This document shows, in pieces, positions 2,481 to 62,890 of a stretch of 64,000 nt of DNA. Every line of letters begins with the position of its first letter. The stretch's first letter is position 1. The translations under genes and the position numbers were made by a program. Source of the stretch: Corythucha ciliata (lineage: Eukaryota; Arthropoda; Insecta; Hemiptera; Tingidae); assembly GCA_038030265.1 (NCBI GenBank), contig CM075941.1, positions 9,300,001 to 9,364,000 of the forward strand, written 5' to 3'. The notes below the pieces were generated by a model, which made no database searches, was not told the DNA's origin, and was given only the letters and a program-made list of their open reading frames with translations.

Positions 2481-2509
2481 ACCCCCCCCCCCCCAACCAG
2501 GACGCCATC

Positions 2510-9800: not shown

Positions 9801-9919
9801 CTCGGAGTTTAGCGTGACTATACGTTTTTTGGCTGGCAATAAGTGGCAGTTGACTTTTGTGTTGGGACCTGCACCTGCTGGAGCGCGGAACGCCACCCCC
9901 CCCCCCACCAAGTTGAGTT

Positions 9920-10870
9920 TTCTTCACTTCAGCAGCAAATTAGCAATTTTGTCTATATTTTAGCAGAGAATTCTCTCAAGTTCTCAGTTTGATGTGAAAA
10001 TTCGGGTTTTCTTACGTTTTTTCCTCAATGTTAGCCAAAATAGCAGGTTTTATCCAAATTTCCACGAGTCACATTTTTTTTGTTCACCATGCGCTAGGAA
10101 TTCGCGAATTTCCTCAGCGGTTTTCCCCCTAAATCAGCCATAAATTGGCGCTTTTCATCAATTATAACCTCAAAATTGCCTTCAGAAGCCGCGAATGGAC
10201 GTATTTACAATTTTGGCCGCGAATTAGTGATTTTCCTCAACTTTTCCCGTGAATTAGCGTTTTTTTCTTAATTTTAGCGACGTAGTAGCGGTTCTAATCC
10301 TTGAATTAGCGAATTTTCTCAATTTTAACCACGAATTGGTGTTTTTCGTACTTTTAGATGCAAATTTGCGGTTTTCTCCATATTTAGTAGCGAATTGGTT
10401 TTTTTTAAAAGCCTTTCTCCGAATTTTGATTTTTTCAAGCCGCAAATTAGCATTTTTGTACATTTTAGCACCGCATGAGCAATTTTGATTTACTTTTAGC
10501 TATGGATTAGCCCTTCTTCACAGTTCTATCCTTGACTCAGCGGTGTTTTTTTAAACTAATAGCCATGGGAGGGGACAGGTGCATCTGCCCCTCTGGGAGG
10601 CCGTTTTTAGCCAATTTTTTGCGAAATTCCAGCAATACGAAGGGCATTCATTACAACACCCATCCCCCGCCGGTCCTTAGTAGGCTGTGGTGGACTGCCG
10701 GAATCACCCCCTCCGGAAGGATTTTTAGGTACGCCCTTGAATTTGCGTTTTTCTCAATTTTTTAGCCACAAAAGTTTAGCCGCGGACTAACACTTTTTAA
10801 TTGACGTTTTCTTTTTTAACCCTTTTCCCCCATTTTTAGAAGCGAAGGCGCGAATTTTCTAAAATTTGAG
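9920..10870 (-). repeat. Satellite A, inverted block
   Basis: Reverse-orientation units with the core TTAGCCGCGAATTAGCG and CTCAATTTTAGC. A variant unit containing TTGCCTTCAGAAGCCGCG lies near 10165. Between about 10560 and 10730 the array is broken by a GC-richer insert of unknown origin. Confidence 0.85.
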
Positions 10871-11480: not shown

Positions 11481-12240
11481 ACACCATAATTTACCTATAC
11501 CGAATTTTCTCAATTTTTGCCAAGAATTGGCGTTTTATTCAATTTAAGCTGCAAATTAGCATTTTTTCCATTTTTAGCTGAGAATTAGCACTTTTCCCCA
11601 ATTTGAACTGAAAATTAGCGTTTTTTTAAAATTGAAGCTGCGGTAATTGGCGATTTTTTTCAATTTTAGCCGCGAATTAGTGATTTTCTTCATTTGTGTC
11701 CGCGAATTAACGTTTTTCCTCAATTTTATATCCGAAAATTGCAAATTAGCGATTTTTCCCAATTTCAGCTGTGAAATAACGTTTTATGCTAATTTTGCGG
11801 CGATTTAGCATCTTATTCCCCTTTTTAAACGCGAATGGGCGATTTGTGAATTTGCCATTTTTTTTCCAATTTTAACCTGAAAGCTTCACGTTTTTGTCAA
11901 TATTATAGCGTGTTTTCTCAATTTTAACCGTGGGGTTGGCCCTAATACAACACTTTTGAGTTGATTTCCATAATTTATTCGTAGAAGGCCTCCATGCACC
12001 GCGAATCAGCGATTTTCTCTCAACTTTAGTCTGGAAGTTGCATCGCGAGATCAGATTTTTTTAATTTTTTGCCGCGTCAGCAAGTTTCAAATTTTCGATC
12101 AGCACTTTACTGGACTTTAGGATCTAACGAAACTGGGGCTGCCGTGTATTTTCTCTATTATAGCCGCGAATTTTCCTCAGGAGAGCGCGGATTTTCTCAT
12201 TTTGTGAGCCACCAGACTAGCGCTTTCGGGGTCTCAATCG
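11480..12240 (-). repeat. Satellite A, inverted block
   Basis: Reverse units with GAATTAGCG and CAATTTTAGCCGCG cores. The array decays near 12200 into GC-richer sequence that ends with a hAT-like terminus reading CAGGGGCGTAGGTAC on the minus strand, ending at 12336. Confidence 0.85.
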
Positions 12241-12645
12241 AATATTCAACTTGCACGCTCTTTGCCGATATCACTTGCAACGTATCGGTCGGGGGGAGGA
12301 TCTATCTCCCATATCCCCCCCGTACCTACGCCCCTGGTTGTACACCAAACCGCACATTGACCAATTCGCTCGTATAGTGATGTGAATCACCCAACTTCAT
12401 CCTGGGTATGCGGCCAGCCAGATGAGGCAAACAAATTTCTCGTTATCGACAGTGATTGAATACGTCCAGGTCCAAGCCCAGGATTCTGGTCGAAGGACAC
12501 CGTTAATACTAAATTACTTCTGCTTTTATCCATGACGGAGACCACTTTTAAACTTCAGCTTTATTGTCCAGCCTATCTGAGGAATGCTCGTGGGCGTGAT
12601 TGTCGCGGGCAGTAGCGAAGCCCTTCCTCGCTGTCTCATGAAGCT
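12241..12645. other. Spacer with a hAT-like right end
   Basis: No gene. On the minus strand the sequence ending at 12336 begins CAGGGGCGTAGGTAC and is followed by a G-run, which resembles hAT-type termini. I found no matching left end or 8-bp duplication, so it is recorded as a solitary candidate end. Confidence 0.4.
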
Positions 12646-16565: not shown

Positions 16566-18590
16566 TCCTCCCCTTAATCCAGACCAAAATAGAAAATAAC
16601 GCTAATTTGAGGCTGAAATTGTGATAAATGGCTAATTCACGGCTGAAATTGATGAAAAAATAACTGATCCACGGCCACAAATAAGAAAAAGTGCTAAATC
16701 ACGGATAAAGTTTAAAAAAAACTTCACTACAAAAATTAAGAACAAGCTCTAAAATCGCGGATAAAGTGTAAAATACAGTCATTTGCGTTTAAAATTACGA
16801 AACACGCTGATTAACGGATAAACTAGTAAAAAATCAGTAATTCACGAAAACAAAACTGTCGTAAAAAGTTCGTGGCTCAGTCTGAAAAAACGCTAATTCA
16901 ATGCTGAAAGTGAAAAAATGCTAATTCATGGAAAATTTATAAAAAATGCTAATTGACTGATAAAATTGGGGAAATCGCTCTTTAGCAGCGCAGCTAAAAT
17001 CACGTATTCACGGCTAAAATTAAGAAAAGTTGCTAATTTGTGGATGCAATTGAGAAAAATCGCTAATTAGTGGCTGAAATGAAGGAGAACACGAATTCAC
17101 TGCAAAATTCAGATGAATCGCTAATTGACGGCTAAAATGGTGAAAAATCGCAAAAATGACAAAAGAATTGCAAATTCGCGGCTAAAATGAAGAAAACTAG
17201 CTAGTTTATGGTTATAATTATCGCGGATTAAATAAAAGAAACTTCGATTCGCGACTTCTGATCGTAACTTCGTGCCAGAAAGTAAAAAAAAAAATCACAT
17301 AATCCGCGGCCAAATTTCAGAAAAAGCGTTTACAGGTAGTTCGCGGAAAAAATTGGGGGAACTCTAATTCGTTGATGAAACGTAGAAAAATCCATAATTA
17401 TAGCGGCTAAAAAGGGGACAAATCGCTAAAATTTGCGGCTAAAATGGAGATAAATTGCTAAATTCACGACTAAAACGAGGAAAAACACAAGTTTGCGGTT
17501 GAAATTAAGAAAAGCATTCTTTCCCAGATACCGAAAAATGTTTATTCGCGGCTAAAATTGACGTAAAGAGCTAATCGCCAGCTAGAACAGAGAAAAATTT
17601 CAATTCAAAGCTAAAAATGAGGAAAGTAGTTAATTAGCGGATAGATTAGAAGAAAAAGCGCTAATTCACGAATAAAGTGTAGAAAAACGCTAATAAGCAG
17701 CTAAAATTAATAAAAATCACAAATTCACGGCTGAAATTACTTAAAACACCAATTTGCGGCTAAAATTGAAAAAACACCAATTCGCGGCTAAAATGCAGAA
17801 AAACGCCAATTCGTGGCTGAAATTAGGAAATAGCTCTTTCGTGACTATAAAATTAAGAAAAACATTCTATTCCGACTAATATTGCTGACATTTTTAATTC
17901 GCTTCTAAAATTAAGGGAAAGTGCCAATCGGCGTGGCGGCTAAACCAAGAAAAACGCTAATTCGTTGCTGAAATCGAGAAAAATCGCTAATTAGCGGGTA
18001 CGTTAGAAGAAAAGACGCTAATTCACGACTAAAGTGTAGCAAAACGCTAATAAACATCTAAACTTGAAAGAATCACAAATTCACGGCTAAAATTAAGGGA
18101 AACTGCCAATTTGCGGCTAAAATTGAGAAACCCCGCTGATTTGCGGCTATAAAATTGAGAAAAAAATTGCGATGTATCACTCAGCAGGCTCAGCTACTGT
18201 TGGAATTGGAGAAGACGCCAAAATTCAAGGTTTCTCAAGGCAACTTCATGACTAAACTTTTACTATTAAACTAAGTACAATTTTTGGTTTTAAATTGTTG
18301 ATTCGCGGATAATATTGAGAAGAAGAGCTCATTTTCCGCTGAAATTACGTAAAATGCACCAATTATTCAGTGGTAAAACGCTAATTCGTAGCTAACGGCG
18401 ACACAAATCAAGAATTAACGGCTAAAATTGAAAAACGCGCCAAACATAATTGACATAAAGCGCTAATTCCCAGCTAAAATTATTAGATACGTTGCTCACT
18501 CGCGGCAGTACCGGCCTCAGACATTTGTCCCCCTTGGACGAATCCTTCAACTGCGCCCCCACCGTTCCGAAAAAAGCGGCGATTTGGCGT
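16566..18590 (+). repeat. Satellite A, long forward block
   Basis: About 2 kb of forward units, the longest same-orientation run in the window. Units are 29-31 bp and diverged. Variant units with CTTCTGATCGTAACTTCG (near 17263) and TCTCAAGGCAACTTC (near 18228) interrupt the regular series. Confidence 0.9.
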
Positions 18591-19400
18591 TTTCTACATT
18601 TTATCTGCAAATAATTAGCGATTTTTTTTTCACGCCAGAGCCTCTTCTCAATTTTGATCGGTGAATTAGCTATTTTTCTCCATTTTTGGCCTCGAGTTAC
18701 CGATTTTTATCAATTTCTACCGTAAATTAGCGCCTTTTCCTATGATTGCCTACTAACTAGCCTCCGGAAACCGCGGCTTGCCATTATCTAATTTCCCACA
18801 AATTAGCAAATTTTCTCAAACTAACCTCCCAATCAGTCATTTTTCTTTATTTTAGCCGCAAAAATTAGCGTTTTTCATATTTTCAGCCACTAATTTTAGA
18901 TTTGTATTCACTTTCTGGCACGAATTATCAAATTCACGTTTTCTCCGTTTAATCTGGGAATTAGCGTTTTTGCAGCTGCAGCGCTTCGCTTCTCAATTTT
19001 ATCAGTGAATTCTCCATTTTAGCCGCAAATTAGCGATTTTTTTCTCATTTTAGGCGTAAATTGGCGATTTTTCACCATTTTAGCTGTGAATTGCCGATTA
19101 ATCTTTATTTCAGCCGTGAATTAGTGAATTTTCTGAATTTTGCAGTGAGTTCGTATTTTTATTGTTTTTAGCAGGCTAATGAGCGATTTTTCTCAATTTC
19201 ATCCATAAATTAGCACTTTTTCATAATGTTAGCTGGGAATTAGCGATTTTTTTTTTCGCTTTATGTGAATTAGAGCGTTTCCTCAATTTGAGCCACGAAC
19301 TTTTTTTTCCCTCAGAAGCCGAAAATTGTCGTTTTCTTAATTCCAGCCGCTATTTATCGTTTTTTATACACTTTTCCGCGAAGTAGCCAATTACTTTTCT
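18590..19400 (-). repeat. Satellite A, inverted block
   Basis: Reverse orientation from about 18590 to about 19400, facing forward blocks on both sides. Variant units with GCCTCCGGAAACCGCGG lie near 18770 and CCCTCAGAAGCCG near 19310. Confidence 0.9.
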
Positions 19401-20260
19401 TGATATAAAACTCGCAGCTTTTGCGAAAAACGTTAATTTACAATTGCAACAACAAGCAGATACAATTGGGAAAACTCTTATACACGGCAAAAATGGAGGG
19501 AATCGCAAATTAAATTACTGCTAAAATTGAGAAAACCCGCTAATTCACTAATAAAATTGAAAAAAAGCGCGAATTAAGAAAAAATCACTAAAATTCATGA
19601 ATGAAATTGGGAAAAAAGCTATTTCGTGGATATAAGGTCTAGAAAAAACGTTAATTCGTGGATAAAAAGGAAAAAATCGGCTAATTCATAGCTAAAATTA
19701 AGAAAGACGCTATAATTCGGGGTTGAAATTAAGAAAAAGTGGTAATTTGAGGCTAAAATTGAGGATTCTGAGGACATTTTTTCCTTGTCCGCCGTTTTCC
19801 CTTAATTTTTCTAGACGAGCCCCATGGCGGTCCCTCACGCTGCACCACCGCACGCACTGCACAGTTCGCAGCTAAAATTGAGAAAACCGCTAATTCGCGC
19901 GGTTAAATCATGAGGAAATCAGCGAATTCGTGCGGCTAAAATTGAGTAAAAACTGTGAATCTGGTCTAAAATTAATTGAGAAATAATTCGCGGCTCCGAC
20001 TAATAAAACTCACTTATTCCCACGCCTAAGATTGAGACAAGCGCTCATTTGCAGCTAAGATAGAGAAAAAACGTAATTCGCGGCTAAAGTTAAAAATTCA
20101 CTCATTCTCAACTTGAAATGAGTGAAAAACGCCAACAAGCGAAAGTTCCATTTCGAATCAACATGAAAAAATCCGCAAAAGCTCCAATTCGTGCCCAAAA
20201 TGTAGGAAACGTCCTGATTCACGACAAAAATTCGGGAAAGCGCTAATTTTACGTTGATAA
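19400..20260 (+). repeat. Satellite A, forward block
   Basis: Forward units with a GC-rich break at 19760-19865, which includes CGCACGCACTG. The array stops near 20250. Confidence 0.85.
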
Positions 20261-43040: not shown

Positions 43041-43339
43041 AACGTTCTTTAGTTTCCACTTCTTCGCCACCATTCACCAGTATAACCTAACTTAGTGACA
43101 CCATATTTGGCACAAAAACCCGGAGTATAAACAGCCTTCGATTGACGTTTTCATTTTTCGAAAAAGTGGAGAGGGAAGGGTAGTCATGGTGGGAGGTGGA
43201 AGTTCCGAATTCCTTGTTAGCACAACTGCCACAAAAAAGATGCTAGCGGATGGAAACTTGGCACAAAAATGGATCATACAGAGCCCTAGCCTACAAGTAC
43301 ACAAAGCTGTACAAGTAAACAAAACTCGTGGCAATTATT
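43041..43339. other. Unique spacer
   Basis: About 300 bp between the hAT-like end and the satellite array. Nothing recognisable. Confidence 0.4.
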
Positions 43340-44372
43340 GCGAAAAACAACGCTAATTCGAGTTTAAACTAGACCAAAATGGCAAATTTACAACTCAAAT
43401 GGCGAAAAATCGCCTATTAATGAAAATAAATAAAAAATAGATAATGTGCTAATTCGCTGCAAAATTATCAGAAAACGCTATTTCACAGCTGAAATGAAGA
43501 AAATATAAAAGAAAGTATAGCTTCTGAAAGAATCGAGGCTCAAACTGAGAAACAGCGCTAATCCGTAGAAAAAAATTGCTCAAGCGGGCTGAAACCTAAA
43601 AAAACTACGCGGCTAGAATTGACAAAAATATTAATTAGCGGGGCCAACTTTAAGAAAAACACTAATTTTCAACTCAAACTGAGAAAAAAGTGCTAATTGG
43701 CTGCTAAAAAATGGCTAAACTGCAGCTGAAAATGAGGAAAACGCCAAATCGTGGCTAAAATGGAGGAAAATCTCCAATACAAACTAAAGAATCCCTACTG
43801 CACTGCTGAAATTGATTAAAAGCGCTAATCCGTGGCCAAAATTGGTTAAAGTTGTAGCGTGCCAAACGCTAACAAACCTCAATTTTTATTTTAAAAAATA
43901 ACAAATATTATGTTAAAATAACAACATCAGTCAGTTTGATCGCAAGTTCGTATTTTCCCAATTTTTCTATAATTAACTATAATTAGCCTGTCATAAATAA
44001 ATGAAAACTCTCGTTTTCAGCTCAAATTGGGAAAAAGTGTTATTCCCGGCTAAAATTTGAGGAAATCACGAATTCGTGGCTGAAAAATTAAGGTAATTCG
44101 CGAATTCACAGATTATAGAAACGCTTCAAAGCATCTCAAGTTGAAAAAAAACGCGAATTTACGGCTAAAGTTGAAGAAAATAATCGCGGATAAAGTGTGT
44201 TGGAATTTCTAATTCCGCCTTCTGACAACAACTTTGTGGCTAAAATTGAGGTAAACGGCAAATTCATGGTTATAAGTAAAAGAAAAAACACTGATTCACG
44301 GCTAGAACTGAGATGAAGCCCTATTCTACATATAATTAGATTGAAAAAAATTACTAATGCGGTGCCAAAAAT
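43340..44372 (+). repeat. Satellite A, forward block
   Basis: Forward, strongly diverged units, interrupted by unrelated AT-rich DNA at about 43865-44010. A CTTCTGACAACAACTTTG variant unit lies near 44218. Ends at the insertion of a 526-bp hAT-like element. Confidence 0.85.
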
Positions 44373-44898
44373 TAGTGATGCACGAGACCGAGACCGAGAC
44401 GAGACTTGAGTGGTCTCGGTCTCGGTCTCGCTCATGAGGGGATGGTCTCGGTCTCGATCATGATAAGTCGGTCTCGGTCTCGAAAGTCTCGGTCTCAGTC
44501 TCGGTCACGTCTCAAAAAGTTAAAGGCGCGAATTCAAAGTATGTGTGATGTTAGTGACGAGTGATCCTATTCTCGCCTCAATGATTACAGATGACGCATC
44601 GGCGGGGGAGGGGGGGTAGGTCCACCCCTTGGATCCACCACAGCCCGGAGGAGGAGGCCCATAACACAATAGCCGTCTCGGCATGAAACAAGGTCATTTC
44701 ATTGTTAAAATGTTCTGTATTCATAAATGAGCCATCATTTCTTTATTCTTTTGATTACGACACCGAGACCAGTCTCGGTCTCGTCTCGAAAATAGTGGTC
44801 TCGTCTCGGTCTCGGTCTCGTCTCGAAAATAGTGGTTTCGTCTCGGTCTCCCTCCAGAAATGGTGGTCTCGTCTCGGTCTCGGTCTCGTGCATCACTG
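44373..44898. mobile_element. Non-autonomous hAT-like element, GTCTCG-rich ends
   Basis: 526 bp with inverted ends: TAGTGATGCACGAGACCGAG at the left and its complement ending CATCACTG at the right. The termini are padded with tandem CGAGAC/GTCTCG. It lies inside satellite A. Flanking 8-mers are similar (GCCAA shared) but not exact. A second copy is at 59847-60316. No transposase is encoded. Confidence 0.8.
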
Positions 44899-45721
44899 GC
44901 CAACATGTAAAAGAACCCGCCAATTTGCGGCTAATATAGAGAAATGCAGTAATTATTCTGGCTAGAATAAAGAGAAAAGTTAATTATCAGCCTAAATTGA
45001 AACAAAAAGTGCTAATTCACTGTCAAAAATGGAAGAATTGCCGATTTGCAGTAAAAATATGGGAAAACGCCAATTCATGGCTAAAATGAACAAAATTCGC
45101 TAATACACGGGCTAGAAATAGCTACTGGACTGCTAAAATTACGATAAAGCGCTAATTTACGGCTAAAATTGAGACAAATTTAAATTTGCGTCCAAAATTG
45201 GAAATACGTTAATTCGCGGCTTCCTCGGGAGACTTTGAGGCTAAAATTGAGAAAAAGCGCTAATTTATGGCTATGAGTGAAAAACTCGCATATTCGCGGC
45301 TAAAACTGAGACGAAATCGCTAATCCGCAGTGTATGGTTACGGTGAACAAAAAAATGCTAATTTGTGGTAAACATTTCGAGAATTTTACGGCTTGTATTG
45401 AGTAATTTTCAGCTCATACTGAGTAAACCGCTAATAAAAATCGCTAATTTGCACCTAAAATTGTGGAAAACGCCAACTCGAGGAAAGTTAAAAAAAACAT
45501 CGCTGATTCACAGGATACCAAATCTACTTTGCTGCTAAAGTTGGGGAAAAGCGCATATTTATGTCTTTATGGGGGTCTTTATGCCTTGGGTGGGGGGGGA
45601 TTACCCCGCCAATTAGTTGCTAATTTGCGTCGAAAAGCGCTAATTTGCTGCTGTTAAAGTTGAGAAATAGCACTCATTCGTTGCTAAAATGGAGAAATTC
45701 GCAGTTTAAACTTGGCATAAG
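44899..45721 (+). repeat. Satellite A, forward block
   Basis: Continuation of the forward array after the hAT-like insertion, with a G-run near 45590 and variant units near 45220. The last unit is split by the element starting at 45722; its remainder resumes at 46492. Confidence 0.85.
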
Positions 45722-46491
45722 CCTTAGAGTATATATAACACTAGAGAGATTTTTGTCCTTTGCGCATTGAAGCAAGGACCTTCTGGAATGACCTCAGTCA
45801 CGTGACTGGTGTTTATTCCCCCTCACCTTGTTTTCGCTCCAAGTTGCTTTGCAACCTACTTGAGTAACCTGTAATAATTACTCGGCCGTTGCTCTGTTTG
45901 CTCCTTTGCTGTCGTTTGTGTGTTGTTCTTTTTTCCGTTTTTCCTTTGTCTATTCATCTTTCTTGCATTTCAACCGTTCTTTTAACGCCCCTACTGTCTC
46001 ATTTTTCCTTTCCTCATTTTCCACTAGTCCACTTCTTTCCTTATTTTCAACCTGGATTTCATTTTATTACGTTCAACGGCTATTATCTCACACCTAAGAA
46101 CGCATGGATAATTTGAGACGAGAAGCTAATTTGCTTGAAAATGAAACATTCAATTTCTTCTTGAAATAAATAGCGGGTGAAACTTAGCACAACGCTTTCC
46201 TTAACAACATTTTTTCATTCCTAATAGTTTCCAATATTTACCTTGAAATGAGCCATTTTCAAACAACGGGGAACTTGCACATTTGTCAAAAAGTGGTGTT
46301 TCTTGAAGAGGGCTCTTCAACAAGACAATTGCTCACATTAAACGTTGAAATCAATCAAGGGTTTTTTTACCTTCAAGCATTTGAAAAAGAGCGGGAAGTA
46401 ATGACCTCAGTCACGTGACCAAGGTGTTTGCTTCACTTTTTTCGTGACGCGCAGCCCAACCACCTCTCTACTGTTTATATATACTCTAAGG
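45722..46491. mobile_element. 770-bp DNA element with CATAAG target duplication
   Basis: Terminal inverted repeats of about 27 bp beginning CCTTAGAGTATATATAACA, with the mirror image ending CTCTAAGG. It is flanked by perfect CATAAG (45716-45721 and 46492-46497), and removing it restores a satellite unit, so it inserted into the array. Inside, TGACCTCAGTCACGTGAC occurs near each end in the same orientation (about 45789 and 46402). No transposase; superfamily unknown (6-bp duplication). Confidence 0.88.
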
Positions 46492-49347: not shown

Positions 49348-51520
49348 TTTTTTTTTTTGGCATTAGCGTTAGCCATAGCCATGCTTGTATAAGTGAGAAT
49401 TTATGTGTTTCTTAAATGCGAATTTGACACTTGTGGACGAAATCAACTATTTTGTCGTACACACGAATATCATTCGATTGTAAAATTGAACTGTAATTGA
49501 AGGGAGAGTCAACAAAGGTTGTAATGGATCGAAATAGCTCAGCTCTTGAAGTTTCATGTTTCCGGCATTCCATGAACGTATGCTCTAATGAGTCGACTTC
49601 CCCACATGTATCACATTTATCATTAGCGACCTTGCCAATTCTGTGTAAGTATTGTTGGCAGATTCCATGGTTGAATTTCAGTCTGAAAATGATGCGAAAG
49701 AACTCTTTTCTCCGATCAATACTCCTAAACCAGACGTTTCGTCTTACGAGTGGGAACATGTTTTTATAAAATGAGCCAACTCTGTCATTACTCCGATACA
49801 CCTTTTGCCATTGCTCAAGCATACTACCGAGTGCCAGTTCCCAGAAATCTGTGTTCGGTAGCAGCAGATCAATCTGTTCGCCCGATATCGTTCCGATCCT
49901 AGCTAATTCATCCGCACGTGAATTGCCCCTCACCCCAATATGTCCACGTATCCAAACTAACACTACTGCTACTCCTTTTTCTTCTAAATTTTTCACAAGA
50001 TGAATTATTTCTGTGGCAATATAGGAGACTTTCGAGGAGTAAGCGAAATATTTTAGAGCACAGACTGCACTTAGGCTGTCCGTGATAATAGCAATCTTTT
50101 GGCCGTGCAAAGTACCAGCATATTTCAAAGCTTCTACAATCGCTGTAAGTTCAGCCGTAAAAACAGAACTATTTTCCGGTAGCTTAAACATGAATTCCTT
50201 GTCGTTAATCGGATCGAACACTCCACAACCGATTTTTCCGTCTAACCTGGATCCATCGGTGAACACCAAATGAAAACCCAATAGTAGCCTACATACCTTA
50301 TCTTCGAAAGCCTGATTTACCATTATAGAGTTGTGATATTTCTCTAGGTCTAACTCAAGAGTATTAACTTTATAGTTCAACATGTATTCGTACTCGAAAA
50401 TTTGGAGTTTCTTTTACTGTTTTATTTGACCGGAGGCTTTCGAGAAGTGCGTGAAACTGGCACACAATAATGGAGATGCTTTCTTTCGGCGGTATGCACT
50501 GGTTAGATCCTGAATTGCAAGGGAACAAATTTTACTCATAATGCTCGATTCAAAAGCCCTGAGTTTAAAGAAAAATCTATCCGCCAACAATCTCCTTCTC
50601 AAGGATAATGGGGCTATCCCTGACTCAGCTAATATACAATCCACTGGCGTGGATTTCAATAACCCAAGGCAAAATCTTAAGCATTTGTTTTGAATTTTTT
50701 CTAGCCCACTTAAGCTAGTTTTGGATGCATTTCCATAAAACATACAGCCGTAGTCCATAATTGACCGCACACACGCTTTGTAAAACAGGATCGCAATATT
50801 GGGATGAGCACCCCAGTGTAAACTTATGACCATCCGAAGGATATTAACTACTTTTTCGGTACGATCGCAAACGTATTTTATATGGGATTTCCATCGTAAG
50901 CCCTTATCAATGAACATACCCAAAAATCGAACTTTAGTCTGAACTTTGAATGTCCACCCTCCTAGGATGACCTGAGGGTCAATAATCACGTTGCGTCTAC
51001 GAGCAAAAAGGCAGCAACTTGATTTTTGGGTAGAGATTTCCAGCCCTACTTCAGTACTCCAAGTATTGAAATGGGTCATCGTCTGGTCCAATTTATTGAT
51101 ACACTCTGATATGGTGTCGCTCGAGACGTACAAGCAGATGTCATCTGCATATAGAAGAATCTTGACTCCTGGAACCAGAATATCTTCAATATCCGAAACA
51201 TAGATACTGTAGAGGAGTGGACTGAGAATATCCCCCTGAGGAAGGCCCTGATTAGCAACTCTAGGACCGATCCAAACATCATTCAAGCGAACATGCAATC
51301 GCCTTCCTTTCATTAAGGAAATGATATTGTGGCAAACTCGACTTGGTATTCCCAATTGAACCATCTTTTTTTGCAGTAGAGATAGCACAACATGATCATA
51401 AGCTCCTTGGATATCAAGAAATAGCCCAAGAGTAACTTTTCTAGTAGAGTAACTATTCTATATACGAATTCGTACGATGTATACAACAATGGATGAAAAT
51501 TAGGCACAATAGTATTGTGC
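49348..51520 (-). mobile_element. 5'-truncated LINE (RT plus RNase H) inside the DNA transposon
   Basis: Non-LTR retrotransposon on the minus strand. The 3' end has an 11-A tail (49348-49358 as T on plus). It encodes the C-terminal part of ORF2 only: no endonuclease and only the last RT blocks. An RNase H domain places it with the I/R1/LOA/Jockey-like lineages. The 5' boundary is uncertain (about 51450-51540) because the frame shifts upstream of the FLDI motif. The host DNA transposon must be older than this insertion. Confidence 0.85.
49412..51445 (-). pseudogene. LINE ORF2 fragment: reverse transcriptase and RNase H
   Basis: RT block A (LFLDIQGAYDHVV), block B (QGLPQGDILSPLLYSIYVS), catalytic YADD (LLYADDICLY) and KFLG-type block (VRFLGMFIDKGLRWKSHI) are all readable. 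An in-frame TAA at 50414-50416 separates them from RNase H, which has FTDGSRLDGKIGCGVF, VFTAELTAIVEAL, IITDSLSAVCAL and a late H/D region (RGHIGVRGNSRADELA). A Cys/His segment (CDTCGEVDSLEHTFMEC) follows. Apart from that one stop the frame is intact, so the copy is not very old. Confidence 0.92.
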
Positions 51521-52365: not shown

Positions 52366-54967
52366 ATGTCCAGAGATGAGAAACTCAGAAGAAAGAGGGA
52401 AGCTGAAAGGGCTCGATACGAGAGGATGAAAAACGACGCCGAAGCATTAGAGGAGCGAAGGAAGAAATTGCATACCAACTACGAAGATTGAAAGAGACGG
52501 AAGGCTGTGAAGATGGTGAGTGAAATGACTGAAAGGGAGAAAAGAAAGAAGAGAAAACAGTGGAGGCAGAACAGCAGGGCATACGCAGAGAGGAAGAGGA
52601 GTCAAAGAATAGTGACTGAATTTTTGGACCGTAATTCTCCCCCAAATTCAAGCGATGAGGATTCTTCACAACCAAGTACTCTTCCAGTGGCAGTCCGGCC
52701 ATCGTCATCAAAACAAGCTAACTCGGGGCGAAAGAAAGTTCGAAGAGACAGATCGAAACTATTACGGGAAAATATAAAACTCACTGAAATGAACAAAAAA
52801 CTACAACGTGACAACTCTCGAATCAAACAGCGGTTTTACCGATTAAAAAGGAAAATTCAGTCACACGATTCTCCGTCAAAAATAGTCAGCAACAGAGAAC
52901 AGGGTGCAAAAGTGGTCAGAAGACGATTGCTTCTGGCAGAAGCGGTCCAGGCAGATATTCATGACAAATATCGGCAGTTAAAATCCCACAAAAGCAAATC
53001 GATTTTCCGAGAATTCATTGCTGGAAATCAACGTCAGTTGCGTAAATACCGATTGATTAACACCTTCCACACTTTCAGCGAATGTATTTTTAGGCGGCGA
53101 CCTGCGACAAACAACCGGAATGTAGCTCGAAAAATGAAGGCAATTAATGACTTTGTTCGTCGGGATGTTGGAGTTTTTTTTGAACAAGACGACGTTACCA
53201 AATGCTGTCCAGGGAAAAGAGACACCATAACATTCAAGAAATTGAAGAAACAAAAACGGTTGCTGAATGATTCCCTAAAGAACTTACACGGCCGGTTCAA
53301 TAAGTCACACGCGTACAATTTAAGTTACTCCTCGTTTTGCCGCTTAAGGCCATTTTGGGCAGTCGTTCCAAAAGTGAGTGAACGGGACACGTGCAAATGT
53401 CTGGTCCACGAAAATATGTCACTTGTGATTGGAACTCTCCATCGCTACAAAGTCATCGCAGAAAATAGCACTACGGCAGTTTTGAGTAAGGTATGTTGTG
53501 ATCCAATGAACGCCAACTGTTTGTTTCGAAAATGCACGTGTTGCCAGCATAAAACTACTCATTACAGAACCTTTGATGGCGGTCTCCAAGTGCAGTATCA
53601 CCAGTGGATCAATACAAAAGCTGATTACATGGATAAGAACACCAAGACACGCAAAACTGTGAAAAAGATTAAAAAAGAGCAACTTACGGCGACCCTTTAT
53701 GACCTCGTTCATATTTTCGAAGATAAGCTGGAAAGCTTTTTCCAACACGTTGGAAGCATACGTCACCAAAATGCACAAGTAGCTCACCTGAAACGTTTCC
53801 TCACCGTTGGTGATGTTTTGATCACTGCAGACTTCAGTGAAAACTACTGCTTGAAATATGGAACTGAAGTGCAGTCGTTCCATTTTGGGGGCAGTAGGCA
53901 ACAGATTTCACTGCATACTGTTGTAGTGTATTTCAAAACTGAGCACTTCGGGCCGGTTAAAAGCAAAAGTATTTGCACAATGTCTGATGTTCTGGACCAC
54001 GACGCACCATCAGTTTGGGCCCACATGCAACCCGTGTTTGAATTTATTAAATCATTAAAACAAAAGATTCAAAATTGCCACTTTCTTACTGATGGCCCCA
54101 GTGCTCAATATAAAAATAAAACTGTATTCTATTTGTTATGTAATGCACTGGTTCATCATTTCCCGGATGTGAAATTCGCCACCTGGAACTACCATGTCTC
54201 AGGACACGGCAAAGGAGCTGCAGACGGCGTGGGTGGATGCCTCAAGCGGACAGCCGACCGGCTGGTGGCTCAAGGCAAGGACATCGCCACGTTTGACGCG
54301 TTGACTTCGGCACTACGGGCTGAATGCAGAAACATCCTCATTCATGTCGTCACAGGAGACGATATTTCGGCTGTGAGGAACATCCTGCCTAACAACTTAA
54401 AGACATTCAAAGGGACGCTTCAAGTTCACCAGGTGGTGTATTCCAACGAAGAACCAACGAAGATTAAACTCAATAAGCTAAGTTGCTTCGAATGCTCCAA
54501 ATTCAAGATCGGCGAGCATAGTCCATTTCAAGAGGAAACAACTGTACCACCAATCGAGGACATTGACCCAACTCAAGTACTGGAAATCACCTCTCATGAA
54601 GTGAACGAGTTTCCCGGACACCATGAGCCCTCGGAGGAAACGGTCGCGACAGTAGAAGATGTCGAATCCATTGCCTCCGAGCATCTCAAAACGGCCGAAG
54701 AACTCGAAGTAAATGATTACGTTCTAGTCAGATTCTTAGTCAAAAAGAAGTTTGTATTCTACATTGGGATGGTTTCCTCGAAATTTAGCAAGAATGATTA
54801 CGACGTTTCATTTTTAAGGAAAAAAAAAAAATTATTACATATTTTCCTCTGTTATCGATTTGTCCAGCGTTATACTTTCGGACGTGGTAGCGAAATTGCG
54901 CCCACCTGCAATAACGAGGAATAGATATTTTTTCAAGGAAAATTTAAAAGAGTTCAATGTTCGTTAA
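52366..54967 (+). pseudogene. Orphan DDE-like transposase with two lesions
   Basis: The frame starts at ATG 52366 (MSRDEKLRRKREAERARYER), hits an in-frame TGA at 52489, and reopens from Met 52507 for 805 codons. The N-terminus is a basic, R/K-rich helix with a coiled coil (about residues 75-115 of the 805). A Cys-rich patch follows (CKCLVHENM, CLFRKCTCCQHK). The probable catalytic core has Asp442 (TADFSENYCLKYG), Asp529 (FLTDGPSAQYKNK) and an HGKGAADGVGG block at about 568-578. The C-terminal domain begins VNDYVLVRF near residue 737. A 12-A run at 54820-54831 throws the end out of frame: with one base fewer, the frame continues to 54967 and matches the end of the pogo-like protein. The HGKG..DG.GG block recalls a widespread but unnamed group of animal transposon proteins. 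Function is inferred from the termini and acidic residues. Confidence 0.8.
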
Positions 54968-56005: not shown

Positions 56006-56375
56006 CCCTTTCCAAATACTTCTACCACACGCATCTCTATACCCTAATCCTTTTAAAAATTAGAGCATCAGACGTCTTGAAAATTATCAAAACGTTTTTT
56101 TTTGGGGAAGAAATACATTAATTTTAACGCATAATAAGTATTAATTACCTATACCTGCCTCTCTGCAACCCAGATAGCTTAACCTAAAATTTTCAGAAAT
56201 ATAACACTATTCAAGGCCTGTACGCGTCTGCTTTGAAAGAAAATGAATTGCAAAAGTAGGATTTTAAGTTCGCTAGGTTTTTCGGAAATAATTACTTCTT
56301 TGTTTTATTTATCAATTATTTGACTGATATGATATGGATGCTCAAGACAATTTCAGATGGAATCGAAGTCCTGCT
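56006..56375. other. Unique AT-rich spacer
   Basis: No gene or repeat recognised. Ends with GTCCTGCT, the left target duplication of the next element. Confidence 0.5.
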
Positions 56376-56459
56376 CAGGGGCGGATACACAGATTTGACC
56401 GGCCCGGGGTACTGGAAAAATATCGGCCCAATAGACATATACAGGGTGTAAAAAAAAAC

Positions 56460-56954
56460 GACTGGACAGAGAAAAACCAGTGAAGGGGCATCTTATTTCT
56501 GATCGAAATGATCATTTGCACTTTTCCGAAATTCCGCTTTGTTTCCGAGATATCCGCCATGTTTTTTTTTTGTTTTATTTTTGTTTTTTTCAGAAACAGC
56601 TTGTTGCGCACGCAATAATTGTTGCAATAGCAAAAATGATGAGCCCATGGAAATTTGATTTTCTGACTATATCACCAATACTTCCGGAATTATGTTTCCT
56701 TGCTAATCAGCTCAAAAACGTAGTATAGATGTCGTCCGATCTGTATAACAATAGGCTCTTTAAATAGAAAATTTGCTCTTTCCACTATTGCAACAATTAT
56801 AGCGTGGGCAACAAGCTGTTTCTGAAAAAAAAAAAAAAACCGGCGGATATCTCGGAAACAAAGCGGAATTTCGGAAAGTGGAAATAGTCATTTCGACCGG
56901 AAATGACCAACGTAATGAGGGGAGTTACCCCTTCATGGTTTTTCTCTGTCCAGT
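56460..56954. mobile_element. 495-bp fold-back (long inverted repeat) element
   Basis: Arms of about 180 bp start ACTGGACAGAGAAAAACCA at the left and mirror it at the right. Strongly conserved inner pieces are CCGAAATTCCGCTTTG and CAGAAACAGCTTGTTGC. The loop is about 130 bp. No coding sequence; transcription would give a long double-stranded RNA. Confidence 0.85.
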
Positions 56955-57650
56955 TAGGCGAAGTGTCCATTTTAGCCGCAAATTCGCGATTTCTCTCAAT
57001 TCCTGCTGTGAGTTAGCGATTTTTCTCAATTTTTACCATAAATTAGCGCTTTTTGGTAGTTGGCTGCAAAGTTTCCTCCGGAAGCCTCGGCTTGCTATTT
57101 TTTCAATTTTTTGTGAATTAGCAGATTTTCTCAATTTAACCCCCAAGTAGCAATTTATCATGATTATAACCACTCATTAGTGCTTTTTCCACATTTTAGC
57201 CGCAAAAATCATAGATTTTTGTACATTTCACCCATGAATTAGAGTTTTTCCCCAATTTTCGTCGCGAATTACGTAAAGCTTTTGGCTTTTGGCTGAGAAT
57301 TAAGCGATTTTTTCACTTTCTGGCACAAAGCTACGAAGCTGCGAATTTGACGTTTTATCCATTCAAATCGCAAATTAGCGTTTTTCCCCACTTCAGCGCT
57401 TCTCAATTTTATCGGTGAATTAGCCACGGATTAACGATTTTTCGCCATTTTAGTGGTGAATTAGCGTTTTTTCTGAATTTTTGCGGTGATTTCGTATTTT
57501 TCTTGATTTTAACCACTAATGAGCCATTTTTCTCAATTTCATTCATGAATTAGCGCTTTTTCTGTACTTTATCCGCGGAAGCTTTAAAATAACTTGAGCC
57601 GCGAAGCAGCGCTTTTTTTCACTTCTGTCCGTGAATTAGTAGCGTACCGA
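56955..57650 (-). repeat. Satellite A, inverted block
   Basis: Reverse units begin immediately after the fold-back element. A variant unit TTTCCTCCGGAAGCC lies near 57070. Decays near 57650 into GC-rich DNA. Confidence 0.88.
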
Positions 57651-57924
57651 GAGATAGGGGCGAGGGGGCCGGATCGCCCCGGCCTGATATGCCCGCGCCC
57701 GCCGGGCTGATGGGGCCCTAATAATATATAATAGGCATATGTGGGCCTAAAAATTGGATATTAAGGATCTATGTTCATGTTTGTAGGTACGTGAAAACGA
57801 GTTTTTGGCATGCAGTTCGACAGCGATATTGGCTCCTTTCGACGATTTTTAATCCATCCGATCCAGGAAAGAAGTGCTTGCAGGTGATCAGCAAATAGTA
57901 TAACTGAATAATCGATTTAGCCCA
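57651..57924. other. Spacer between inverted satellite blocks
   Basis: Contains a GC-rich palindromic stretch (GGCCGGATCGCCCCGGCC near 57670) and then AT-rich DNA; no gene. It marks the centre of inversion between the two satellite blocks. Confidence 0.5.
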
Positions 57925-59235
57925 CAAAAGCGCTATTCTGAAGGCTCAATTTGAGAGAATTGACGGGTAACTTCGCGGCTAAAATAGAGAGAATACGCTG
58001 CTTCCCAGTATTTTTTAGGTCCGTAAGCGGATAAAGATGAGAAGGCGTACTAATATGCTATTCTTGCAGGAAAGTACCAACGCAGCAAAAAGTTGGGAAA
58101 AATCGACAGTATTCGTGGCCAAAACTGTTCAAAAACCTTCATTCGCGGTATCTCGATGAAACATCCAGACCGAAATTGAGAAAAAATCGCTGATTCGAGT
58201 TGTTTAGATGCCACCTTATGTCTGAAATGAAGAAAAAACGCTAATTTGCTGTGGTAAGATTGAGACTTGGCCCAGTTTTTGCTTTTCTGCAAGCGCTAAA
58301 AGGCAAGAGAACCCGCTAAGGCTGTTCAATGAAAAAAAAAAAACACGCTAATTCGGGGCTAAAATTGAAAGAAATGACAAATTCCCAACTGAAACTGCAA
58401 AAAATCGCCCATTCGCGGATAAAAAGTGAAAAGCCACTAATTCACAGCCTAATTTTCGAAAAATGCTAATTCACGACTGAAATTGAGAAGAATGGCTAAT
58501 TAGCTGCTAAAATTGGGACATGCGCTATAATCCACGGCAAAAATTGAGAAAAATAGCTAATTCGCCAGTGAAATTGACAAAAAGCGCTGTTTATTAGCGG
58601 CTAAACTTGGAACAATCGTATTTCGCGGACTTAATTGAAAAGAATAGATAATTAATTCGCAGCTAAAATTGTAAAAAATCCGATAATTTGCGGATAAGTC
58701 TAGAAAAAACGTTCATTCGCGGATTCAAATGAAAAAAATCGGCTAATTCACGGCTATATTAGAGAAAACGCCAATTCACGACTAAAATTTAGTAAAAACG
58801 CTGACTCGGGGCTGAAATTCAGCAAAAGACAATAATCTGTTGCTTCTGAAGGCGACTTCGTGCCTAAACCTGAAAAAAAACGCGCTAGTCCATAGCTAAA
58901 AGTTGAAAACAAAATTGTATATGCGGGACAAAAATAGTTCGTACACCGCTTATTTGCGGCCAATGTTGAGAAAAATCGCTAATTAATTAGCGCGGCTGAA
59001 ATTAACGAAAAACGCTATACTTGCCGCCCAAAGTGCTAATTCACTGCTGAAAAGGTTAAAAAAAGCTAATTTGCTGCAAAAATCTAGGAAAACTTTAATT
59101 CATGGCAAACATTGAGAAAAATCGCTAACATGGGATAGAAACGCTACTTCACAGCTAAAATTGAGGAAAATCACCTATTCGCGGACAAATGTAGAGGAAA
59201 AGCTCTGTAATTCACGGCTAAAATTGAAAATTTCA
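57925..59235 (+). repeat. Satellite A, forward block
   Basis: About 1.3 kb of forward units, with a CTTCTGAAGGCGACTTCG variant near 58848. Ends at a short AATT-rich palindromic patch (59225-59285). Confidence 0.9.
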
Positions 59236-59846
59236 ATTTCAATTGAAATTGAAATTTATTCAATTGAATTTGAATTTATTCAATTTTCGGTTATTTTATC
59301 GTTTTAAATATTCATAATTAAAATGTGCTTATTAGGTCATTTTTTTTAGCCAACCTTCCTCCCTCCCCCCCCCCATCATTTTGCTAGACGCGCCCTAAGG
59401 ACACGGCGCCCCCGGGCGGTTGCCCGGCTCGCTCCTCCTAAAGCTGGCACTGATGGTTGATCTCAACCAAGTCGGAGAGAAAAACCGCATACAATGATCA
59501 CAATCTGCTTTGCTGGGCTCTGAATCTAACGAGGTAGAATGCCTAAGTCCCCGATCAAGTCCTAGCGCCCAGTGCCCTGAAGATTGCAACGAGACCATAA
59601 AATCGGTATTGGAGCAGGTATAAGACATCAAAGTAGGGAAAAAATGTACGCAGCTTGGGGACTGAGGCACAAAATGCTGCGGCAGGCCTTTAGAGTACGT
59701 GTATTCTGGGTGTTCTCAATGAGTGAATTTTGAACCAACCGCTAAGCTATACGCTATAAAACAGCCTTGTGTCTTGAGTCATGGATTAAAGGGTGTCCCG
59801 GTTTTGAGAAAACCCTACTTGATAGGTGTTCTCATTTGCCTCATTG
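59236..59846. other. Spacer inside the hAT-like element
   Basis: C-run near 59367 followed by a GC-rich stretch; no recognisable gene. The 91-codon minus-strand frame at 59395-59670 has no domain. Confidence 0.5.
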
Positions 59847-60316
59847 AAGTGATGCACGAGACCGAGACTTAGCATCTCGGTCTCGGTTTCGGTCGTTAGC
59901 AAGATGATCTCCGTCTCGTACTTAAAAAGTCGGCCGTATAGGTCTAGTCAAATCGCTGAAAACTCGTGTGGGGTATTCTATTAGAGGGTTATCGATCCCC
60001 TCCCCCCTTTGAAAGGTCTCCGATTTGCCCTTTGATGCTTGATGCTATGTGTGTAGGTCACAGTATTCCAAACTTGAGAAATTAGAGGCACGCTATTTCT
60101 GCACGAAACGAATCGAATTCGGGCCGGTCTTCGGTCCGGGCTAAAGACCCAAACCGGTTTCCGGAGAGGGGAGCATTAGATTGGGTTCATTTGTTGTGTA
60201 AAAAGATCTACTCCGGCACTATATGCATCGTGCTTTTTGGATCACACCGAGACCGAGAAAATGAGAAGTCTCGGTCTCGGTCCGGAAAATGCAATCTCGA
60301 TCTCGGTGCATCACTG
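59847..60316. mobile_element. Second GTCTCG-ended hAT-like element
   Basis: 470 bp with ends AGTGATGCACGAGACCGAG and CTCGGTGCATCACTG, homologous to the element at 44373-44898. The flanks share TCATTG (8-mers CTCATTGA and TTCATTGT), consistent with an aged 8-bp duplication. Non-coding. Confidence 0.8.
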
Positions 60317-60539
60317 TTCATTGTACCTATGCTATAATAGGCCAGTTCCGGGATTCTGTAGGCTTACCTTACGGACCATTACCGAGAAAAATTAATCTGT
60401 CAAAGCTGGGATCCGTCAAAGAGTTGGGGGGGGGGGAGCAGTCATCGGCCCTCCGGCCGCACTAGCCCTCCGGCCCTTCGGGCTCAGCCCGATCGCCCAC
60501 CCCCTGTATCCGCCCCTGGTCCTGCTGATCAATCATACT

Positions 60540-60870
60540 GGTGGACCCACCGCTTTGTCCGGAACCGACTACGGTCATATTGGTGGCCCACCAGTTTGTC
60601 CGAAGGAGTCTCCGGGGCATTCTGGTGGCCCACCAATTTGTCCGATACACTACGGACAAATTGGTGGTTTCACCCACCAATATGACCGCCCACCAATATG
60701 TCCGAAGTGTTTCGGACAAATTGGTGGGTGAGTGAATTTGTCTCATCCACCAATATGACCGCCCAGCAATTTGTCCGATGCACAACGGGCATATTGGTGG
60801 GTGCGGGAATTCCTTCCACTACCGCACCCACCAATTTGTCCACCCACCAATATGACAGCGACTCTAGTAC
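60540..60870. repeat. Minisatellite of alternating CCACCAATWTGWCCG units
   Basis: About fifteen copies of a roughly 15-bp unit in both orientations, so neighbouring units form hairpins (for example ATTTGTCCG...CGGACAAAT around 60640-60665). Starts just right of the hAT-like element. Open frames across it are repeat artefacts rich in NWW. Confidence 0.85.
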
Positions 60871-61120: not shown

Positions 61121-62374
61121 TAAGAAAGCGAAAAGGAATTTAGAAAATGTTGCATAGCTACTCTAGTCCCAAATGACGTGCCCAAACCCGGCGTTTTCTC
61201 CGAGAATCTCATTATTGTACACGCTGTAGAAACGAGACAAAATTTAAATCCTGAAGGACTTGACCACAGGGATGTTTCTGGAAGAAAGATAGAACAGCCG
61301 AAGAGGTAATACAATTATCAACGATATTGTTCGATTTTTTAAAAAAATATGGTGGGCTCCTGTTTGAATTTTTTTAAAAATTGAAAACAGGTCAGTCACC
61401 CTTTTCCCTTTCTTTAGAAATGAAAAGCCGTTTGCCCCTATTTAAGAGATCATAAATCCTCCGTAACTGTCCACTCTATACCTCCTTCTGAAGCCACTGT
61501 TAGTGCAAGTTTAGTGCTCAGTGAAATACAACTTTCGTTTTTCATGGAAAAAAAAAAAAAAATGTCGCTTTCATTCCTTTGTACCCGGACCCGGGGTACT
61601 GCAAATGAACAGTATGACCAGTTCAGAGTCAACGATTCAACGACGATAGAGAAAACGGGAAACGTTTCAATTCTTGCAAAAAGGGTGGGTTTGACCTGTT
61701 ATGACTCGAAAAAGTTTTGTTGAAAGAAGCCGTAAACTGTTAAATGAAGAGAAGAAGTAAAAGTTGTCCTGGGAGAAGCACTGGGGGACGTTTACCTCGG
61801 CCCTTTGGTGCAAACAATGAAAACGTAAATTGGTCTCGCTTGAAATGAACAGATACGCTTTGCACATTAAAACAGCGGCTGGTAGTAAGGGGTGAGGGGT
61901 AGTCTTTAGTGTGACAATAAGTAAAAGTTGACCCTTTACCGGTTCGGTGACCATAGAGATAAAGAGGAACAAGTGAATGTTGCATGTTAAAAGGAGGAAA
62001 TATGGTTCTGCGTATAGTTCTTCATGGACAGGCATTAAATAAATAAGGTTACGCAAAGGACGCGACCACCAACCAGTCTTTTAAGAGTAAGAGACCTCGT
62101 ATATAAAAATGTAATGTTTACGAGTAAGTTGGAGTACAAAGCTACAATCCTGGCCGATTTTCGACGATCTTCCCACGCGCACATCAAATAATTATCAATG
62201 AAAAATGTATCTGAATGCGTGTGAAATATTCAACTTGTGAATTTGTAGCCAAGGATAGTAACGATAACTTGGCTAGAGAGCTCAAGTGGTTGTTCTGACA
62301 AGACCAGAGGATTTTAAAGAGCGCACCTACATGAAGGGTATATCAATCCATGTTTAACGTAAATAAGCTGCAAG
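61121..62374. other. Intergenic DNA, no gene seen
   Basis: AT-rich; open frames up to 129 codons on the minus strand (61667-62056) show no domain or signature. Confidence 0.45.
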
Positions 62375-62890
62375 TGCAAGGTTTTCTCAGTTTTAGCGGT
62401 GAAATCGCAGGATTTTTCAAATGCATCCGCGCGAATTAGCATTTTTTTTCTCTAATTTTAGCAGCCCTATTCTCGCTTTTTCCTCATTTAAGCAGTGAAT
62501 TATCGTTTTTCTTCACTCCTTAGTCCTGTGGATTAGTGCACTTTTTCTCTGTTCTATAGACGCGTATTTACCACGTTTCCGGACTTTGACCCGCGAATTG
62601 GCAGATGTTATGTCAAATTGATCCGCAAATCAGCGTTTTGTTCATTTTAGCTGCAGATGAGCGTGCATTTTCTCAATTGTAGATGCGATTTATTTCCTAA
62701 TTTTAGTAGCGAATTATTTCTCAATGTCAGTCATAACAATTACCATTCTTCCTTGATTTCAGCAGATTTTCTCGAATTATCCAATATTTATAATTTTTCT
62801 CCATTTTAGCTGTGAATGAGCGCGTTGTGTCAACTGTAGCAGCGATTAACGCATTTATCTGAAATTTAGACTCGAATTAGCGCCCACCAA
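62375..62890 (-). repeat. Satellite A, inverted block
   Basis: Reverse units, more diverged than most, ending near 62890. Confidence 0.8.

What the first reader, a model, noticed from the sequence alone, without database searches (positions are those of the whole stretch)
56376..60518. hAT-like element with perfect 8-bp duplication carries the satellite as cargo
Ends CAGGGGCGGATACA/GTATCCGCCCCTG and duplication GTCCTGCT are exact, and the interior holds inverted and forward satellite A. This suggests the satellite spreads around the genome by hAT-type transposition, explaining its scattered inverted arrays.
Basis: partly seen in the sequence, partly recalled or inferred. Interest (0 to 1): 0.75.

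Follow-up and report, generated by a model that had tools for sequence, protein, structure and literature searches.

The report
Jumping DNA element carrying satellite repeats
In a true-bug genome, families of cut-and-paste jumping DNA carry blocks of a 30-base satellite-like repeat inside them and have brought those blocks to many places, which explains part of how the repeat became scattered.

Summary
In detail: 14/14-bp ends and an exact 8-bp duplication. The element belongs to a hAT-like family (f1) in a 400.9-Mb heteropteran genome: 458 exact ends against 2 for the reversed pattern. Of 20 facing end pairs picked blind to their interior, 20 carry the satellite; 15 have exact 8-bp duplications and 3 have one mismatch, against 0 of 380 between copies. 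The array moves as a frozen block: same-position monomers 95.8% identical between copies, different positions 54.9%. The window's insertion site exists empty elsewhere: 40 of 40 scored matches cross the junction. A second family (f2, 1644 ends) carries the satellite in 5 of 5 copies seen. The wider claim is only partly shown: 6 of 12 other window array segments descend in register from f1 or f2, and 28 of 32 consensus-like monomers in one chromosome stretch lie outside recognised ends. No sampled copy has a long reading frame and no helper was found. Satellite-bearing transposons are known (Helentrons, MITEs, foldback); I saw no hAT example in the papers searched.

The parts
56368..56375 (+). 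Left copy of the 8-bp target site duplication GTCCTGCT
   Evidence: Exact match to 60519-60526; joined flanks with a single GTCCTGCT align through the junction at 40 of 40 scored places (202 candidates), best 98% over 177/177
56376..56389 (+). Left terminal inverted repeat CAGGGGCGGATACA
   Evidence: 14/14 to right end; 458 exact copies in the genome against 2 for the reversed pattern
56442..56954 (.). Nested foldback element (inverted arms, outer end CAGGGTGTA...), a feature of the window copy's subfamily; boundaries approximate
   Evidence: Inverted arms; absent from the 7 short copies printed, present in L010 with a more complete right end
56972..57624 (+). Forward satellite array, 16 recognised 30-bp monomers
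   Evidence: PWM scan; 87-99% identical in register to 12 other copies
57625..57982 (.). Non-satellite middle segment, GC-rich at its start (TACCGAGA then a CAGGGGYGAGGGGGCC-like motif in several other copies)
   Evidence: 91-99% identical to 12 other copies where aligned; motif list
57983..59221 (-). Inverted satellite array, 25 recognised monomers
   Evidence: PWM scan; 87-99% in register to 12 other copies; the same arm of copy L041 shares weak in-register descent with the f2 array
59222..60504 (.). Right non-satellite segment of the element, including the nested element below
   Evidence: 97-100% identical in the close copies L010-L013 over its aligned parts
59848..60316 (.). Nested small hAT-like element, ends AGTGATGCACGAGACC / GTGCATCACTG
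   Evidence: Uninterrupted TCTCATTGTACC at this point in L029, L041, L043, L047
60505..60518 (-). Right terminal inverted repeat TGTATCCGCCCCTG
60519..60526 (+). Right copy of the target site duplication GTCCTGCT
11491..12336 (+). Relic of a second satellite-bearing hAT-like family (f2): array in register with f2, right end CGTACCTACGCCCCTG at 12321-12336
   Evidence: 80-83% to f2 copies L017, L018, L053; 526 bits against at most 278 in 8 monomer-order shuffles
9916..10567 (+). f2-derived array, possibly the left part of the same relic
   Evidence: 283 bits against at most 121 in 8 shuffles
43336..45575 (-). f2-derived arrays (43336-43844 and 44902-45575)
   Evidence: 175 bits against at most 111, and 293 against at most 133, in 8 shuffles
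16949..17723 (-). Diverged array in register with the f1 forward arm
   Evidence: 255 bits against at most 172 in 8 shuffles
18646..19222 (+). Diverged array in register with the f1 forward arm
   Evidence: 245 bits against at most 185 in 8 shuffles

Best explanation
The feature is a non-autonomous hAT-like transposon. Blind-sampled copies are 1.5-4.5 kb long, with 3.36 kb the commonest form; the window copy, 4143 bp, belongs to a subfamily enlarged by two nested insertions. Most of its body is two opposed arrays of a degenerate 30-bp satellite-like repeat. Shown: the family is multi-copy, copies sit at different sites with their own 8-bp duplications, empty sites exist for two insertions, and the arrays travel as a fixed block. 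Inferred: a hAT transposase made elsewhere in the genome cuts and pastes the element in trans, with the satellite as a passenger; copies then decay, lose their ends and are hit by further satellite-bearing hAT elements in either orientation, leaving scattered inverted arrays. At least one more family (f2) does the same, so hAT transposition is a real route by which this repeat spreads. How much of the total it explains is open.
For: 458 exact ends against 2 for the control. 20 of 20 interior-blind end pairs carry the satellite (18 with both orientations, 2 with one), 15 with exact and 3 with one-mismatch 8-bp duplications, against 0 of 380 cross-copy matches. Monomers of copy L041: same position in 10 other copies 95.8% (n=350), different positions within L041 54.9% (n=595). 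WIN, L009, L010, L012 and L013 share the stretch that contains the nested hAT-like element at 98-99% yet have five different duplications, so the enlarged element itself moved. Empty sites: window copy and L022, whose host repeat is uninterrupted at window 37862-37690 with one GAAATTAC, 154 of 176 columns identical. f2: 1644 ends, control 0; 5 of 5 copies seen hold satellite, 3 of 5 have exact duplications. hAT dimerisation domains: 150 matches over the cut-off, all that were scored of 655 candidates.
Against: No sampled copy has a long frame: longest stop-to-stop 80-169 aa in the 20 f1 pairs, 115 in the window copy. None of 13 listed hAT-domain matches on C1 lies inside a listed f1 end (nearest 3.4 kb, on the outer side). 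40 of 82 f1 ends on C1 are outside the facing pairs under 12 kb and were not sampled. 12 of 20 similarity-fetched copies show no matching right end within the fetched 9 kb by the simple scan, and L027 has no satellite block. L035 and L036 have no duplication in fixed register; of the f2 pairs, L051 has 2 mismatches and L052 none matching. 28 of 32 listed consensus-like monomers in one C1 stretch are outside recognised ends.
Confidence: 0.92

Rival explanations
1. The satellite spreads mainly by another route (rolling-circle reinsertion, other transposons, local duplication), and hAT elements captured it early and carry a minor share.
For: Rough estimate of 370,000 monomers, about 11 Mb, against about 7,300 in roughly 229 f1 copies (mean 32 per copy) and about 22,000 in roughly 822 f2 copies (mean 27 in five copies) with exact ends; my arithmetic. 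Only 2 of 32 listed monomers on C1 3.17-11.62 Mb lie within 4 kb inside f1 ends, 0 inside f2 ends and 2 inside f3 ends, one of these being L049, where the f3 end was found. 6 of 12 other window segments have no clear in-register match. L049 and L050, picked by exact monomers, show no hAT end pair with duplication in the 6 kb fetched.
Against: Old copies lose exact ends, so exact-end counts are lower bounds. Four of the other window segments are f2-derived and two f1-derived at 65-83% identity. Among the about 100 places listed of 5741 matches, the only run was three monomers at C6:1984255, so long homogeneous arrays were not seen.
Confidence: 0.35
2. The arrays are not passengers but part of the transposon's machinery: tandem binding sites for the transposase or a host protein, kept in both families for that reason.
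For: Present in 20 of 20 blind f1 pairs and 5 of 5 f2 copies. The f1 inverted arm and the f2 array share weak in-register descent (156 bits against a shuffle mean of 113, 0 of 46 shuffles as high). hAT elements are known to have subterminal repeat motifs bound by transposase (recalled).
Against: In the 3.36-kb form the arrays begin about 270-290 bp from the left end and stop about 665 bp from the right end; totals run from 15 to 52 monomers in the blind sample and to 67 in L024, and monomers within a copy are only 54.9% alike. The f1 forward arm shows no in-register descent with f2 (20 of 46 shuffles as high).
Confidence: 0.1
3. The satellite entered an already inserted hAT at this locus, and the association is local.
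For: Satellite monomers are common nearby: 231 of 272 in the window lie outside the element.
Against: The same array order recurs at 87-99% identity in 12 other copies, and arrays are present in 20 of 20 blind pairs at other sites.
Confidence: 0.01
4. Each f1 element is a composite of two satellite-bearing elements, one inserted inside the other in opposite orientation, which made the inverted pair.
For: The middle segment carries a CAGGGGYGAGGGGGCC end-like motif after TACCGAGA in several copies; a like motif stands before the array in L049, whose array is followed by CCGCCACTG. The inverted arm, but not the forward arm, shares descent with f2.
Against: An exact second TACCGAGA follows the inverted array in 9 of 11 copies searched, but in the copies whose tails were printed it is not beside a hAT-like end; L029 has it with one mismatch and L032 not at all. 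In L049 the motif is also preceded by TACCGAG and neighbouring letters, so the likeness does not start at the motif as it should for a free end.
Confidence: 0.25

Closest known systems
Cg_HINE non-autonomous Helentrons of Crassostrea gigas (PMC7492417; abstract and outline seen)
   Same: Dispersed satellite-like arrays are the central part of non-autonomous DNA transposons; several element families; arrays spread by transposition
   Different: Helentrons, not hAT elements. Here there are 14-16-bp inverted ends and 8-bp duplications, and in f1 the repeat lies in two opposed arrays
Tetris foldback transposon of Drosophila virilis (PMC4079207; abstract and outline seen)
   Same: Non-autonomous DNA transposon with internal tandem repeats in inverted arrangement, said to have seeded satellite arrays
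   Different: Tetris repeats (about 220 bp) lie in the terminal inverted repeats themselves; here the 30-bp repeats are internal, behind short hAT-type ends
Satellite-containing MITEs, e.g. miDNA4 in Xenopus tropicalis, Xmix in Xenopus laevis (passages of the review PMC9659126 seen)
   Same: Non-autonomous class II element linked to tandem repeats
   Different: Listed there as Tc1/mariner or unassigned. In that review hAT occurs only in reference titles
Non-autonomous hAT elements in general (e.g. the hAT MITE family Mar, seen only as a reference title)
   Same: 8-bp duplication, short ends beginning CAG, no transposase (general features recalled)
   Different: Longer, and filled with satellite-like arrays

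Membership tests
hAT superfamily (non-autonomous member) | 8-bp target site duplication | tested here: met
   Window copy exact; 15 of 20 exact and 18 of 20 with at most one mismatch, against 0 of 380 cross-copy
hAT superfamily (non-autonomous member) | Short terminal inverted repeats of the CAGNG type (recalled consensus) | tested here: met
   CAGGGGCGGATACA, 458 exact ends
hAT superfamily (non-autonomous member) | Target site preference nTnnnnAn or nnnTAnnn (recalled) | tested here: inconclusive
   27 duplications: T at position 2 in 33% and A at position 7 in 41%; both together in 3 of 27; TA centre in 0 of 27
hAT superfamily (non-autonomous member) | Moved by a hAT transposase from an element with the same ends | tested here: inconclusive
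   150 hAT dimerisation-domain matches scored of 655 candidates; none of 13 on C1 lies inside a listed f1 end. The end list covers only C1 and the start of C2
hAT superfamily (non-autonomous member) | Clean insertion, shown by an empty site | tested here: met
   Window copy: 40 of 40 scored matches cross the junction (letters at the junction not printed); L022 with letters
Classical satellite DNA | Long homogenised tandem arrays | tested here: inconclusive
   Monomers within copy L041 54.9% identical; about 100 listed of 5741 matches are dispersed with one run of three. The whole genome was not scanned for arrays, so I say satellite-like
Foldback elements (Tetris, FB) | Tandem repeats forming the terminal inverted repeats | tested here: not met
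   Strong homology between the two ends stops after 14 bp; arrays are internal
Helitron/Helentron | No target site duplication (recalled) | tested here: not met
   8-bp duplications

The most novel reading that the evidence does not exclude
Most of this genome's dispersed 30-bp repeat (about 11 Mb by a rough estimate) was laid down by a group of non-autonomous hAT families that inherited one ancestral array, with nesting of these elements in each other producing the inverted arrays; the repeat is in effect a transposon interior that only looks like a satellite.
Probability: 0.4. Interest if true: 0.68.

Novelty: new variant of a known kind. Interest (0 to 1): 0.55.

Why it matters
How satellite-like repeats reach scattered sites is an open question, and the DNA-transposon vehicles I mainly saw named in the papers are Helitrons, Helentrons, foldback elements and MITEs. 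Here hAT-type transposition is tied to dispersal of a satellite-like repeat by duplications, empty sites and frozen array order, in at least two families of one bug genome (true bugs have holocentric chromosomes; recalled, and in listing titles). If several hAT families did inherit one array, the origin and spread of a satellite could be dated copy by copy.

Tried and rejected
Satellite inserted locally into one hAT: rejected. A nested third element with duplication TACCGAGA inside f1: suggestive left motif, but no proper right end beside the second TACCGAGA; kept as a rival with lowered odds. Autonomous partner: comparison of hAT-domain matches on C1 with listed f1 ends gave none inside. A longer form of the repeat in viral contigs: 0. 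Rfam at gathering cut-offs: 0. Naming the species: the best-scoring relative of the window's Toll-like protein is 80% identical (Apolygus lucorum) with other Heteroptera next, so I say heteropteran only (best 120 of 2428 listed). Literature for hAT plus satellite: listings; passages; outlines with abstracts. No hAT example seen, which is not proof that none is in print. The monomer estimate pools loci picked for f1 and for exact monomers and includes L049 and L050 although its printed label says L009-L048. One search used a typed subset of the f1 ends near the hAT matches.
Full report
What is there. At 56376-60518 the window holds a 4143-bp element with 14/14-bp inverted ends and an exact 8-bp duplication GTCCTGCT. 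Inside are 16 forward and 25 inverted copies of a degenerate 30-bp repeat; 41 of the window's 272 recognised copies are inside it. The best-scoring relatives of a Toll-like protein in the window are from true bugs, 80% identity to Apolygus lucorum, so the host is a heteropteran; its assembly has 400.9 Mb in 57 contigs and the window is C5:9300001-9364000.

It is a family. Searching the genome with the first 625 bases gave 146 matches from the 40 candidates scored of 1398. Eight of the 20 have a paired right end within the fetched 9 kb, six with exact and two with one-mismatch duplications; L011 shares the L012 site and has a damaged right end. 19 of the 20 hold satellite blocks in the fetched stretch; L027, similar only in its first ~450 bp, does not.

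A blind sample. The exact end occurs 224 + 234 times, against 0 + 2 for the reversed pattern. The listing covers C1 and the start of C2. C1 has 82 ends, 42 of them in 21 facing pairs under 12 kb. I took 17 of these 21 (three were over 4.5 kb, one was L013, already held) and the first three of C2 under 4.5 kb. All 20 carry the satellite: 18 in both orientations, L035 and L046 in one. Fifteen have exact 8-bp duplications, three have one mismatch, and two do not match in fixed register. Left against right flanks of different copies matched in 0 of 380 comparisons. The commonest form is about 3.36 kb; ten copies of 3.2-3.4 kb are 93-98% identical to each other and 86-87% to the window copy.

The array moves as a block. 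In 12 copies aligned to the window copy the arrays are 87-99% identical in register, much like the other parts. Monomers of copy L041 are 95.8% identical to the same position in ten other copies, but 54.9% between positions within L041. The window copy's subfamily has gained a foldback element and a small hAT-like element that the short copies lack; L009, L010, L012 and L013 share the stretch holding the latter at 98-99% with different duplications, so the enlarged element transposed as a whole. Array size varies among copies, for example 52 inverted monomers in L024.

Empty sites. The flanks of the window copy joined with one GTCCTGCT match 40 scored places (of 202 candidates), all through the junction, the best at 98% over 177/177 bases with no length change; the element thus sits in a dispersed host repeat. 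The letters at these places could not be read. A separate copy, L022, sits in a repeat that is uninterrupted at window 37862-37690 with a single GAAATTAC, seen letter by letter.

A second family. An end beside a satellite array at window 12336 led to two complete elements of 2.2 kb in the flanks of f1 copies L017 and L018, with ends CAGTGGCGTAGGTAGG / CAGGGGCGTAGGTACG, exact 8-bp duplications and one array of the same repeat. This end pattern occurs 1644 times, control 0. Three further pairs of at most 2 kb taken in list order (five were asked for, three allowed; one longer pair passed over) all hold the satellite; one has an exact duplication, one differs at 2 bases, one does not match. A third end type (263 matches, control 0) stands beside an array in L049. 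The f1 inverted arm and the f2 array share in-register descent (156 bits; 46 shuffles, mean 113, maximum 132); the forward arm does not.

How far it explains the scatter. Testing 12 other window array segments against f1 and f2 with 8 monomer-order shuffles, four descend from f2 and two from f1; 2500-3515, 5030-5760, 18170-18520, 19420-20260 and 62370-62890 do not, and 3515-5026 is borderline (151 bits against at most 132). Satellite elements insert into each other: the left flank of L010 is f1-like array and that of L028 f2-like array. But of 32 listed near-consensus monomers on C1 3.17-11.62 Mb, 2 lie inside f1 ends, 0 inside f2 ends and 2 inside f3 ends, one of these being L049 itself. A rough total is 370,000 monomers, about 11 Mb, far more than the roughly 30,000 that exact-ended f1 and f2 copies would hold. 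Older, end-less relics may fill the gap or another route may operate; the data do not decide.

Mechanism. Shown: multi-copy insertion with 8-bp duplication, empty sites for two insertions, frozen cargo. Inferred: cut-and-paste by a hAT transposase in trans. No sampled copy has a frame above 169 aa, hAT domains abound in the genome, and no autonomous partner with these ends was found in the part compared. Membership rests on 8-bp duplications and CAG-type ends; the helper is untested.

Known comparators. Satellite-like arrays as centres of non-autonomous transposons are described for Helentrons in oyster (PMC7492417, abstract), a foldback element in Drosophila (PMC4079207, abstract) and several MITEs (PMC9659126, passages). 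In that review hAT occurs only in reference titles, and in PMC10048060 not at all. I therefore call this a new variant of a known kind.

Noticed in passing
window 45723-46490: A 768-bp element with inverted ends CTTAGAGTATATATA and an exact 8-bp duplication GCATAAGC, sitting next to a satellite array; its ends are not of CAG type.
   Followed up: no
window 44373-44898: An element with ends resembling AGTGATGCACGAGACCGAGAC, filled with GGTCTC-type repeats, inside a satellite region; a similar one is nested at 59848-60316.
   Followed up: partly
window 13224-13237: A lone hAT-like right end CAGGGGCGGTTTTA (reverse strand); no left partner with at most 2 mismatches in the window.
   Followed up: no
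window about 1480-2480; L050 about 5340-5640: A second, different short repeat (units like GCGCCCTAAAAATGGCAAAACTGACTATTC) next to satellite arrays.
   Followed up: no
window 60533-60850: Tandem and inverted CCACCAATTTGTCCG-type repeats to the right of the insertion. The host repeat tested reaches only to 60583, so whether the whole stretch belongs to it is open.
   Followed up: partly
L013 (G000:C1:53745090-53754590): An f1 copy followed by a second partial copy of its right part, with GTTTTACA three times: a tandem or repair-made duplication.
   Followed up: no
G000:C7:11173238 and C7:11231805 (L012, L011): The same f1 insertion with the same duplication TTCCTGTC and 95% identical left flanks: segmental duplication of a filled site.
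   Followed up: no
window 22861-26940: Toll-like receptor gene open in one frame over 1359 codons, 80% to Apolygus lucorum over most of its first 500 residues.
   Followed up: partly
window 30368-33106 and 49412-51457: Pao/BEL-type retrotransposon frame and a non-LTR-like reverse transcriptase with RNase H.
   Followed up: no
window 52492-54924: 810-codon open frame with no Pfam match at E 0.001 and no solved relative by sequence.
   Followed up: no
G000:C6:1984255-1984343: Three consecutive exact consensus monomers, the only such run in the listed places, perhaps a younger homogeneous array.
   Followed up: no
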